Source: an uncultured Eubacteriales bacterium (GTDB lineage Bacteria > Bacillota > Clostridia > Oscillospirales > Acutalibacteraceae). Taken from it: a stretch of DNA of 32,404 bases. Position 1 is the first letter of the stretch; each line of letters begins with the position of its first letter. Below the pieces are notes generated by a model. That model was not told the origin of the DNA. It saw only the letters and a list, made by a program, of their open reading frames with translations, and made no database searches. Of the stretch, positions 10,072-28,867 are shown in pieces. Position numbers and translations under genes: made by a program. The stretch is taken from contig ONDU01000008.1 of NCBI GenBank assembly GCA_900316615.1, forward strand, positions 1-32,404, written 5' to 3'.

Positions 10072-10145
10072 TTTAAGGGTTTCACCCTTAAAAATCCTGA
10101 CCAAAGGCTCTGCCTTTGGAAACCGCAAGCCTTTGAAAAGGCTTG
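10072..10145. repeat. intergenic hairpin repeat, family II, copy 1
   Basis: Three consecutive perfect hairpins fill the pyrC-pyrF gap. Hairpin 1 is TTTAAGGGT with partner at 10084-10092 and loop TTC. Hairpin 2 is CCAAAGGC-TCT-GCCTTTGG at 10101-10119. Hairpin 3 is CAAGCCTT with partner AAGGCTTG at 10138-10145 and loop TGAA. A conserved tail (ACCTAAACTTTATG) continues to about 10159. The same series recurs inverted at 14538 and in direct orientation at 25661. It contains no open reading frame of its own. Confidence 0.8.
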
Positions 10146-10173
10146 ACCTAAACTTTATGTTTTCTTTATCGGA

Positions 10174-14486: not shown

Positions 14487-14537
14487 AAGATTTCGGCGTA
14501 ATGTAAAAAATTGTTAATAACTTTTCAACTGAGAAAA

Positions 14538-14622
14538 CATAAATTTCAGGTCTTTTAAAAGGCTTGCGATTTCCAAAGGCAGAGCCTTTGGCGGAGTTTT
14601 CAAGGGCAAAGCTTTTGAGCTT
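14538..14622. repeat. intergenic hairpin repeat, family II, copy 2 (inverted)
   Basis: This is the reverse complement of the series at 10072. It starts ACATAAATTTCAGGTC. A partly eroded hairpin 3 (TTTTAAAAGGCTTGCG) comes next. Hairpin 2 is intact at 14573-14591 (CCAAAGGC-AGA-GCCTTTGG). A changed hairpin 1 at 14601-14617 (CAAGGGC-AAA-GCTTTTG) keeps pairing through G-T pairs. It fills most of the gap between the ATPase gene and the ferredoxin gene; the upstream extension of the ferredoxin reading frame is an accident of this repeat. Confidence 0.75.
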
Positions 14623-17280: not shown

Positions 17281-17316
17281 GTTGCCCCTTATGCCGTTAA
17301 AGGTATAAGGGGCAAC
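17281..17316 (+). terminator. stable hairpin after vorC, no T run
   Basis: GTTGCCCCTTATGCC pairs with 17302-17316 over 15 bp with a single G-T pair and a 6-base loop. It starts 30 bases after the vorC stop. No T run follows; the family I cloverleaf repeat begins four bases later. It may be an intrinsic terminator that lost its T tract, a processing site or 3'-end stabiliser, or part of the repeat unit. Confidence 0.5.
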
Positions 17317-17320
17317 GTGA

Positions 17321-17416
17321 GGCGATTGCAGCCGTCAAAAGTGTTCACTTTTGACAAAATTCAAGCGAATGCTTGAATTTTCACGGCGGCATCTGCCGCC
17401 GTGGGCTGCAATCGCC
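17321..17416. repeat. cloverleaf intergenic repeat, family I, copy A
   Basis: The outer stem GGCGATTGCAGC (17321-17332) pairs perfectly with 17405-17416. Three hairpins lie inside. The T arm is GTCAAAAGT (17334-17342) with 17347-17355, loop GTTC. The M arm is AAATTCAAGC (17357-17366) with 17371-17380, loop GAAT. The G arm is CACGGCGGC (17382-17390) with 17395-17403, loop ATCT. Single bases join the arms, giving a compact four-way junction. The arm order is the reverse of copies B and C on this strand. A flank at 17417-17437 also matches, in reverse complement, the flank ahead of copy B. Confidence 0.9.
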
Positions 17417-17479
17417 TACCCAGAGCGAAGCCGCAGGCTTTGAAAACAGGCTGATATTATTGATGAAACGGAGATAGAA

Positions 17480-21604: not shown

Positions 21605-21811
21605 ATGAAGAATAAATTATCAGCTTTAGCAGCTTCGCTTTTTGCAGTAACAGGACTTTTTATGTTATCTGTATTTAACTGCTTTGCACTTGGCGATGGA
21701 AAAAGCATTATGCCTACAGGTGACAGCAGTACCATAATTGTGGTTATAACCGCTGTACTTATGGTTGCAGCTGTAATTACCATCGTAATTCTTTCAATTA
21801 AGAAAAAATAA
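21605..21811 (+). CDS. 68-aa exported mini-protein with sorting-signal-like tail
   Basis: The 68-residue product consists of an N-terminal signal-peptide-like stretch (MKNKLSALAASLFAVTGLFM onward, probable cleavage near FALGDG). About ten residues follow (DGKSIMPTGD). A second hydrophobic helix comes next (about 43-64, TIIVVITAVLMVAAVITIVI), then a KKK tail. P-T-G-D directly before a hydrophobic helix and basic tail is the layout of an LPXTG-type cell-wall sorting signal, although the pentapeptide is not canonical because one residue between P and T is missing. Almost nothing would be left as an outer domain. ATG 21605 follows ACGGAGGTTTGT. It has its own promoter and a strong terminator, which supports a real transcript. 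Function is unknown. Confidence 0.7.
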   Translation: MKNKLSALAASLFAVTGLFMLSVFNCFALGDGKSIMPTGDSSTIIVVITAVLMVAAVITIVILSIKKK

Positions 21812-21824
21812 ATGCTTTTTTCAA

Positions 21825-21866
21825 GGGCAGCAGCTTATTCCGAAAAAGCTGCTGCCCTGTTTTTTA
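21825..21866 (+). terminator. strong Rho-independent terminator
   Basis: GGGCAGCAGCTT (21825-21836) pairs perfectly with 21846-21857 across a 9-base loop and is followed by TGTTTTTTAT. It ends the small-protein transcript 14 bases after its stop. Confidence 0.9.
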
Positions 21867-21907
21867 TCATAATTTCGTTTTCCGTCTGCGGCTTCACTCA
21901 GGGTGAG

Positions 21908-22002
21908 GCGATTGCAGAACACGGCGGCATTCGCCGCCGTGAAAATTCAAGCAAATGCTTGAATTTCGTCAAAAGCGTGCCGCTTTTGATGTCTGCAATC
22001 GC
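21908..22002. repeat. cloverleaf intergenic repeat, family I, copy B
   Basis: The outer stem GCGATTGCAGA (21908-21918) pairs with 21992-22002. The G arm is CACGGCGGC (21920-21928) with 21933-21941, loop ATTC. The M arm is AAATTCAAGC (21943-21952) with 21957-21966, loop AAAT. The T arm is GTCAAAAGCG (21968-21977) with 21981-21990, loop TGC, including one terminal G-T pair. Single bases (21919, 21942, 21967, 21991) join the arms. The upstream flank 21886-21906 matches copy A in reverse complement with two substitutions and one indel. It lies between the small-protein terminator and sigK. Confidence 0.92.
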
Positions 22003-25660: not shown

Positions 25661-25716
25661 CTTAAAAGACCTGACGAGGGTTCTGCCCTTGTCCCACAAG
25701 CCGTTGAAAAGGCTTG
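25661..25716. repeat. intergenic hairpin repeat, family II, copy 3
   Basis: This copy has the same orientation as the one at 10072. Hairpin 1 is lost. Hairpin 2 is ACGAGGG (25674-25680) with CCCTTGT (25686-25692), a changed sequence that still pairs. Hairpin 3 is CAAGCC (25697-25702) with GGCTTG (25711-25716). A tail GACCTTAACTTCAGGTTT to about 25732 corresponds to the tail of copy 1. It lies between two lipoprotein genes. Confidence 0.7.
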
Positions 25717-25785
25717 ACCTTAACTTCAGGTTTCTGTTTTTTGTGTACGATGTGTAACGAATATCAAAAAAGGGGATATTTTAAA

Positions 25786-28719: not shown

Positions 28720-28805
28720 GCGATTGCAGACCACGGCATTCGCCGTGAATTTAAAGCGGAGCTTTAAATTGGTCAAAAGCGAAGCTTTTGACCGTCTGCA
28801 ATCGC
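28720..28805. repeat. cloverleaf intergenic repeat, family I, copy C (inside spoIIIA)
   Basis: The outer stem GCGATTGCAGA (28720-28730) pairs with 28795-28805. The G arm is CACGGC (28732-28737) with 28742-28747, loop ATTC, three pairs shorter than in copies A and B. The M arm is AATTTAAAGC (28748-28757) with 28761-28770, loop GGA. The T arm is GGTCAAAAGC (28771-28780) with 28784-28793, loop GAA. The M arm differs from copies A and B at two base pairs, each changed on both sides. GCGTGA occurs on both sides (28711-28716 and 28807-28812), a possible target duplication. Confidence 0.92.
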
Positions 28806-28867
28806 AGCGTGAGCGAAGCTGAAACTAAAAGCCGCCGAAAAAAATTTAACATTAGGTTGTGAACAAT

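What the first reader, a model, noticed from the sequence alone, without database searches (positions are those of the whole stretch)
21908..22002. Family I: a three-arm cloverleaf intergenic repeat in three copies within 11.5 kb
Copies at 17321-17416, 21908-22002 and 28720-28805 each show an 11-12 bp closing stem (GCGATTGCAG...CTGCAATCGC) enclosing three perfect hairpins joined by zero or one base. A stacked triple hairpin with a closing stem is a four-way junction in RNA, or a branched cruciform in DNA. It does not fit simple REP, BOX or terminator patterns, and I cannot name it. Copies A and B share about 20 further bases of flank, so the unit may exceed 110 bp.
Basis: partly seen in the sequence, partly recalled or inferred. 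Interest (0 to 1): 0.8.

Follow-up and report, generated by a model that had tools for sequence, protein, structure and literature searches.

The report
Cloverleaf DNA repeats between bacterial genes
An uncultured gut-type bacterium carries well over a hundred short stretches between its genes that can each fold into the same near-perfect four-armed junction although their letters differ, which points to a repeat kept for its shape rather than its sequence.

Summary
The three copies are real; copy A is reversed relative to B and C. Each is an 11-14 bp closing stem around exactly three abutting, near-perfect hairpins: a four-way junction.

The window's genome (G000) and sister species G394 (its listed copies coincide with MAG RUG158) each hold 133 exact-stem copies. 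A covariance model finds about 149 places in G000 at its cap. Four other congeners give none or one weak match. Pairing covaries in 35 of 41 pairs, and orthologous copies show compensatory changes in place.

A sequence-independent scan found the same three-arm architecture, with different sequence, in another genus (G477), and none in samples of 40 family genomes.

None of 127 mapped copies lies in a called gene; most follow a stop codon by about 40 nt, in either orientation. Arms almost lack wobble pairs (5 of 2,458), and some loops are inverted between species, as expected of template-switch correction of DNA hairpins. Rfam, tRNA, REP/RAYT and terminator readings fail.

Most likely: an old, dispersed, structure-defined DNA element whose closing stem is recognised by something unknown. 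An RNA role remains open; no enzyme was identified.

The parts
17322..17415 (+). Copy A, arm order X-Y-Z. Closing stem 17320-17333 with 17404-17417 (14 bp, core GCGATTGCAG/CTGCAATCGC)
17334..17355 (+). Copy A arm X (GTCAAAAG type), 9-bp stem, 4-nt loop
17356..17381 (+). Copy A arm Y (AAATTCAAG type), 11-bp stem, 4-nt loop
17382..17403 (+). Copy A arm Z (CACGGCGGC type), 9-bp stem, 4-nt loop
17418..17440 (+). Flank of copy A (AGCGAAGCCGCAG), resembling the reverse complement of the left flank of copy B; half of a weak outer stem
21908..22002 (-). Copy B, X-Y-Z on the minus strand. Closing stem 21908-21918 with 21992-22002 (11 bp). Absent at the orthologous site of RUG158, where another hairpin repeat stands
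21885..21907 (-). Left flank of copy B (CTGCGGCTTCACTCAGGGTGAG), half of the weak outer stem
28720..28805 (-). Copy C, X-Y-Z on the minus strand. Closing stem 28720-28731 with 28794-28805 (12 bp); arms 28732-28747, 28748-28770, 28771-28793. Lies between spoIIIAB and spoIIIAC
28806..28822 (-). Right flank of copy C (AGCGTGAGCGAAGCTG), like the outer-stem consensus

Best explanation
A high-copy intergenic DNA repeat that is defined by its fold: an inverted-repeat closing stem around exactly three abutting palindromes, so that one strand folds, or the duplex extrudes, into a near-perfect four-way junction.

SHOWN: the copies, the predicted fold, the covariation including the closing stem, the intergenic placement just after stop codons, the near-absence of wobble pairs, compensatory change at orthologous sites, patchy presence in two genera, and presence/absence between sister species.

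INFERRED: (1) The arms stay perfect because DNA replication template-switches within each hairpin. This copies one arm onto the other, producing double changes without wobble intermediates, and sometimes inverts the loop. (2) The closing stem is the part something recognises. In G000 its sequence hardly varies while the inner parts of even the closest copies differ by about 30%, and its outer GCGR...YCGC is enriched in the other genus too. (3) The element spread by a mechanism that sees the four-way junction, mostly before the two sister species split, and is now resident and slowly lost. The mobilising or binding protein is unknown.
For: Copy number: 133 exact patterns in G000 and in G394.

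Architecture: three arms 55, two/four/five arms 0/0/0 in G000; 17, 1, 0, 0 in G477. Shuffled sequence, four congener samples and 17 unrelated loci give 0.

Covariation: 35 of 41 pairs change on both sides and the score is 0.607, against 0.159 shuffled and at most 0.113 slid (rows include both strands of most copies). The mixed G000+G477 alignment scores 0.666 against 0.171.

DNA-level signs: arm pairs in 83 transcription-oriented copies are WC 2,447, GT 5, AC 2, other 4. In G477 they are WC 809, GT 2, AC 3, other 8.

Orthologs: in 31 syntenic pairs (3 with one flank only), 1,195 of 1,268 stem pairs are unchanged and 40 are WC-to-WC double changes, against 26 single changes from WC. Unpaired positions changed 136 of 390. 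Element identity is 0.91, flanks 0.70 and 0.74. In 50 pairs from a structure-only set, arms show 83 double against 54 single changes. Exact loop inversion occurs in 9 of 57 changed loops, against 3.6 expected under permutation. The whole element is closer to forward in 31 of 31.

Placement: 0 of 127 copies in called genes, median 41.5 nt after a stop codon, orientation 46:40. 0 of 119 in the structure-only set. 0 of 26 in G477.

Age: by one measure, closest paralogs have medians 0.71 and 0.69 and maximum 0.86, orthologs median 0.89. Losses or gains: 7 of 57 syntenic sites lack a cloverleaf.

Shared closing motif: GCGR in 19 of 31 G477 closing strands, shuffled mean 4.1, maximum 10.
Against: No enzyme, no target-site duplication and no near-identical copy pair was found, so mobility is inferred only. 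RNA-level selection would also give covariation, and because the fold is nearly its own reverse complement, random orientation does not exclude RNA. Loop inversion is only moderately enriched. Among arms that differ, 18 were closer to inverted and 14 closer to forward, which saturation could also give. The non-element hairpin control was small: 21 compared, 1 closer to inverted, with some element arms leaking through the mask. Exactly three arms is not explained by template switching alone. The closing-stem invariance is partly built in, because many copies were fetched by that exact pattern. Two of the 50 ortholog alignments (L235:6625, L236:2030) look misaligned and inflate the single-change count.
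Confidence: 0.55

Rival explanations
1. An RNA element of 3' untranslated regions and operon spacers: each copy is transcribed and its four-way junction protects, cleaves or tags the mRNA. It works in either orientation because both strands give nearly the same fold.
For: Position about 40 nt after stop codons, mostly between co-directional genes: 86 of 106 copies with both neighbours called. Copy C sits between spoIIIAB and spoIIIAC. Strong covariation. RNA fold energies are extreme.
Against: Wobble pairs are almost absent (5 GT against 2 AC of 2,458), whereas RNA stems normally hold many (recalled). Single changes in orthologs show no GT preference (5 GT, 9 AC, 12 other; 12, 20, 22 for arms; not oriented by transcription). 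Copy B lies beyond an apparent hairpin-plus-T-run terminator at about 21825-21866. Absent from two congeners at the spoIIIAB-AC gap and from four upstream of pth.
Confidence: 0.25
2. An ordinary MITE: a non-autonomous TIR transposon with ends KGCGATTGCAG, mobilised by a DDE transposase; the inner palindromes are incidental.
For: Short terminal inverted repeat with conserved ends (K before GCGATTGCAG at 248 of 254 ends), random orientation, presence/absence between sister species.
Against: Three clean empty sites show no target duplication and lose more than the cloverleaf. No near-identical copies among those compared. The arms covary in place, which incidental sequence would not. G477 keeps the architecture but not the terminal sequence.
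Confidence: 0.12
3. A transcription terminator or attenuator with an elaborate hairpin.
For: Location after stop codons; weak A-rich upstream and T-rich downstream flanks.
Against: Only 7 of 71 co-directional copies with an outer stem have 6 or more T in the next 10 nt. Copy C interrupts the spoIIIA gene cluster. Copy B follows an apparent terminator.
Confidence: 0.05
4. REP/REPIN-type repeats moved by a RAYT (Y1) transposase.
For: Palindromic, intergenic, high copy, sometimes clustered.
Against: Y1_Tnp (PF01797) has no match in G000, G394 or G477, though it is found in non-carriers G272 and G396. Four-way closed architecture.
Confidence: 0.02

Closest known systems
REP / BIME repeats and RAYTs
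   Same: Small palindromic extragenic repeats, often more than 100 copies per genome (abstract start of PMC2817692 in listing)
   Different: REPs are single 20-40 bp palindromes, many GTAG- or CGTC-tagged (title and abstract start of PMC3733652 in listing). Here a closed four-way junction, variable arm sequence, no Y1 transposase
MITEs and stem-loop repeat families (Cozzuto et al. 2008, PMC2267715, abstract and outline seen)
   Same: Intergenic families sharing a secondary structure rather than a gene
   Different: No target duplication found. Architecture shared across genera without sequence. Arms near-perfect and covarying in place
LIMP palindromes of the Lobosphaera mitochondrion (PMC4524435, passages read)
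   Same: Dispersed intergenic palindromes with loops in both orientations; DNA cruciform or RNA processing proposed
   Different: One hairpin built of pentamer repeats, 19 copies, mitochondrial
Template-switch maintained hairpins (PMC8794818 abstract read; PMC8604942 abstract start in listing)
   Same: Arm homogenisation, multi-base compensatory change and spacer inversion are the reported signature
   Different: A mutation mechanism, not an element; does not explain the three-arm closed design or its copy number
tRNA-like cloverleaf
   Same: Acceptor-like stem plus three hairpins
   Different: Longer stems (means 9.5, 10.4, 9.3 bp for the arms), no tRNA found by ARAGORN in the window, no Rfam match

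Membership tests
REP/RAYT (REPIN) | RAYT (Y1) transposase in the genome | tested here: not met
   PF01797: 0 matches in G000, G394, G477; 3 in G272, 1 in G396
REP/RAYT (REPIN) | Intergenic palindrome in high copy | tested here: met
MITE | Terminal inverted repeats | tested here: met
   Closing stem, exact 10-bp core in 97 of 119 structure-only copies
MITE | Target-site duplication | tested here: inconclusive
   None seen at three clean empty sites (L115, L234, L240); two other sites did not align cleanly, one ortholog is truncated and one is replaced by another repeat
MITE | Autonomous parent transposon with the same ends | not tested
Intrinsic terminator | Hairpin followed by U-tract | tested here: not met
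   7 of 71 co-directional copies with an outer stem
Known structured RNA (Rfam 15) | Match above gathering score | tested here: not met
   0 matches in the window; with E up to 0.5 two sub-threshold matches, both in L163, one of them over a cloverleaf
tRNA/tmRNA | ARAGORN detection | tested here: not met
   0 genes in the window
Functional RNA structure | G-U pairs tolerated in stems | tested here: not met
   5 GT of 2,458; 2 of 822 in G477. The detector demands three perfect pairs next to the loop
Functional RNA structure | Transcription of the element | not testable with these tools
   No RNA-seq available

The most novel reading that the evidence does not exclude
A class of genomic element whose heritable identity is a junction, not a sequence: genome-colonising DNA that presents a perfect four-way (Holliday-like) junction. 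It would be recognised and spread by a junction-specific protein, with arm sequences free to drift because replication template switching keeps re-perfecting them. G000/G394 and G477 would be independent or very old invasions of the same kind.
Probability: 0.3. Interest if true: 0.88.

Novelty: new variant of a known kind. Interest (0 to 1): 0.74.

Why it matters
Repeat searches and RNA searches rely on sequence or on models built from known RNAs. This element is easily missed by both unless one searches for the shape: two genera share the architecture although no G477 copy scores above 0.52 against the G000 copies compared. It offers a natural assay of hairpin template switching in bacteria, with hundreds of arms that can be read for compensatory change and loop inversion. 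It raises the question of which protein sees a four-way junction on the chromosome and what it does there. If mobility is confirmed, it would be DNA replicating by structure rather than by sequence.

Tried and rejected
Rejected readings: chance palindromes (0 in shuffles); Rfam RNA; tRNA; RAYT-driven REP; terminator; plasmid or phage origin (no match to copy B plus flanks in plasmids or phages). L093 is an IMG/VR contig whose two copies are identical to RUG158 copies, so it is probably host DNA.

Led nowhere: the outer stem as a covarying helix. Native flanks give a mean of 15.8 outer pairs and swapped flanks 14.5, so its pairing reflects a shared consensus more than locus-level covariation. 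Search of 394 order genomes with R2 scored only 10 candidates per genome, and that of 150 family genomes with R1 only 28, so both are weak evidence of absence. The RecU cleavage preference that might fit TGCA in the closing stem is recalled only; the paper opened for it (PMC3485210, passages) did not state it in the passages seen, and the idea is not used.

Own results against the reading: the permuted control for loop inversion is 3.6, not zero. The first arm comparison counted 18 'closer to inverted' against 14 'closer to forward', near what saturation would give, so only exact inversions are used. The control hairpin set was contaminated by some element arms.

Rows dropped: of 114 distinct exact-pattern sequences, 17 did not fold to three hairpins and 2 more failed the junction parse. 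All 19 come from unrelated genomes or the viral loci L094 and L095; the remaining 95 come from the carriers or L093. In one search, 3 of 86 copies could not be parsed. Of 52 G000 copies, 44 had a candidate syntenic locus and 31 passed the synteny filter.

Full report
OBSERVATION. The three copies are at 17322-17415, 21908-22002 and 28720-28805. Each folds as RNA or DNA into one closing stem with three abutting hairpins. Copy A reads in the opposite orientation to B and C, which is why repeat finder lists A and B as a 70-nt inverted pair. No RNA family matches at gathering.

COPY NUMBER. The window is G000:C34. The pattern GCGATTGCAG-N55..85-CTGCAATCGC matches 133 places in G000 with 0 in the control. 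RUG158 corresponds to G394, because listed sequences and positions agree. All 95 sequences from the carriers (L093 included) fold as a cloverleaf and all 19 from other genomes or the viral loci L094 and L095 do not. Two of six genomes of the genus match, with 133 places each, and 1 of 394 in the order, G000 itself. It returns 150 in G394 (list cut), one weak match in G395 and none in G272, G396, G397. In 150 family genomes, with only 28 candidates scored per genome, G000 and G477 match.

ARCHITECTURE WITHOUT SEQUENCE. The G477 hit had the same design but a different closing stem. I wrote a detector that uses base pairing only. In 298 kb of G000 stretches it finds 55 three-arm cloverleafs and no two-, four- or five-arm ones. 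In 185 kb of G477 it finds 17 three-arm, one AT-rich two-arm and no others at the same threshold, or 20 at a looser one. It finds none in 100 kb each of G272 and G397, 51 kb of G395, 71 kb of G396, 17 unrelated loci (132 kb) or shuffled sequence, and none in samples of 40 other family genomes, 577 kb, one of which (1.6 kb) is all N. A mixed model R2 gives 105 strand-specific matches in G477 and none in seven congeners; over 394 order genomes it matches only G000, with 10 candidates scored per genome. The G000 stretches were chosen because they hold copies, so densities are not genome averages. G477 copies score at most 0.52 against any of the 52 G000 copies compared, and their closing strands hold GCGR in 19 of 31 cases, against 4.1 when shuffled (the 31 include a few AT-rich doubtful ones).

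COVARIATION. On 121 aligned matches (both strands of most copies), 35 of 41 pairs change on both sides, 92.5% of cells pair, and the covariation score is 0.607 against 0.159 shuffled and at most 0.113 for slid partners. The closing stem varies too: 22 of 119 structure-only copies in 609 kb depart from GCGATTGCAG/CTGCAATCGC, some on one side and several by compensated changes such as GCGATTTCAG/CTGAAATCGC. All 119 sequences are different.

PLACEMENT. None of 127 distinct copies lies in a called gene, with a coding fraction of 0.80. Of 106 with both neighbours, 86 lie between co-directional, 13 convergent and 7 divergent genes. Among 296 gaps of at least 100 nt the numbers are 222, 31 and 43. 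The median distance from the upstream stop codon is 41.5 nt for co-directional pairs. Orientation relative to transcription is 46 to 40. The structure-only set of 119 gives 0 in genes and a median of 40 nt. In G477, 0 of 26 lie in genes. Gene calls come from my own simple codon model and miss small genes. Copy A lies between a pyruvate:ferredoxin oxidoreductase gene and pth; B after mfd and a 68-codon ORF (21605-21811) and before a sigma-factor gene; C between spoIIIAB and spoIIIAC. In G397 the spoIIIAB-AC gap is 50 nt without the element, against 160 nt in G000; in G272 it is 298 nt with a row of other hairpins.

EVOLUTION IN PLACE. For 31 syntenic copies of G000 and RUG158 (3 with one flank only), 1,195 of 1,268 stem pairs are identical, 40 are WC-to-WC double changes and 26 are single changes from WC. 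Unpaired positions changed in 136 of 390. Element identity is 0.91 and the 60-nt flanks are 0.70 and 0.74. A second set of 50 pairs gives 83 double and 54 single arm changes, with two apparently misaligned pairs inflating the singles, and element identity 0.88 against 0.70 and 0.71. By one common measure of the inner part, closest paralogs within a genome have medians of 0.71 and 0.69 and a maximum of 0.86, orthologs a median of 0.89, 20 of 31 above 0.86. Most spread therefore predates the species split, and the copies are maintained where they sit. RUG158 copies were fetched by the exact closing stem, so closing-stem conservation is partly built in.

DNA OR RNA. In 83 transcription-oriented copies, 2,447 of 2,458 arm pairs are Watson-Crick, 5 GT and 2 AC. 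G477 gives 809, 2 and 3 of 822. RNA stems under selection normally tolerate G-U (recalled). Among 57 changed loops, 9 are exact reverse complements of the ortholog, against 3.6 under permutation, while whole elements stay closer to forward in 31 of 31. Arm homogenisation with spacer inversion is the reported signature of template switching (PMC8604942, abstract start in listing), and template switching is reported to give multibase compensatory mutations in stems (PMC8794818, abstract read). I therefore favour DNA-level maintenance. RNA use is not excluded, because the fold is almost its own reverse complement and so orientation carries no information.

EMPTY SITES. Of 57 syntenic G000 copies, 7 lack a cloverleaf in RUG158; the RUG158 loci were fetched for holding copies, so this is no unbiased rate. 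At L115, L234 and L240 the missing stretch exceeds the cloverleaf, with no target duplication; an outer inverted repeat is visible in the lost flanks of the first two. L232 and L233 do not align cleanly. One site is truncated after GCGATTGCAGA, and the site of window copy B holds a different hairpin repeat. Copies are thus gained or lost as a unit longer than the cloverleaf, or decay.

MECHANISM. Shown: predicted structure, copy number, placement, in-place compensation. Inferred: template-switch maintenance, recognition of the closing stem, past dispersal through a junction-specific step. REP/RAYT is excluded as far as the assemblies allow. No candidate enzyme was found; across the carriers only family PF01797 was searched.

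PRINT. Searches for cloverleaf, four-way junction, cruciform and palindromic intergenic repeats listed no paper whose title or abstract start describes such an element. They cover open-licence PMC only, and I read listings apart from four papers (PMC4524435 and PMC3485210 passages, PMC2267715 and PMC8794818 abstract and outline).

Noticed in passing
window 10101-10165, 14532-14591, 25694-25764: A second intergenic repeat made of perfect or near-perfect hairpins in a row (CCAAAGGCAGAGCCTTTGG, AAGCCTTT...AAAGGCTTG) without a closing stem. The same kind of row stands in RUG158 at the site of window copy B.
   Followed up: partly
L264, L265, L266 upstream of pth; L261 between spoIIIAB and spoIIIAC: Congeners without cloverleafs there (G396, G272, G395) carry rows of hairpins (AAGGGCTTTGCCCTT, GGGGCTTTGCCCC and others) in the same intergenic slots, as if different palindromic repeats occupy equivalent places.
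   Followed up: partly
L109:7888-7957 and L109:12005-12085: Weak matches that look like half-elements: one end of a cloverleaf joined to unrelated sequence, probably decayed copies.
   Followed up: partly
L244:6407-6534, L230:7619-7740, L047:4417 region: Copies whose closing stem extends as an inverted repeat for 20-30 bp into the flanks.
   Followed up: no
window 17281-17316: A near-perfect hairpin (GTTGCCCCTTAT...ATAAGGGGCAAC) immediately left of copy A, without a T-run; identical in G394.
   Followed up: no
L093 (IMG/VR contig 3300032007_004071): Two copies identical to RUG158 copies on a contig classed as viral; probably host DNA or a prophage flank.
   Followed up: no
G000:C25:3-88 and G000:C71:12-97: Matches of equal score at the ends of two contigs, perhaps one copy at an assembly break.
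   Followed up: no
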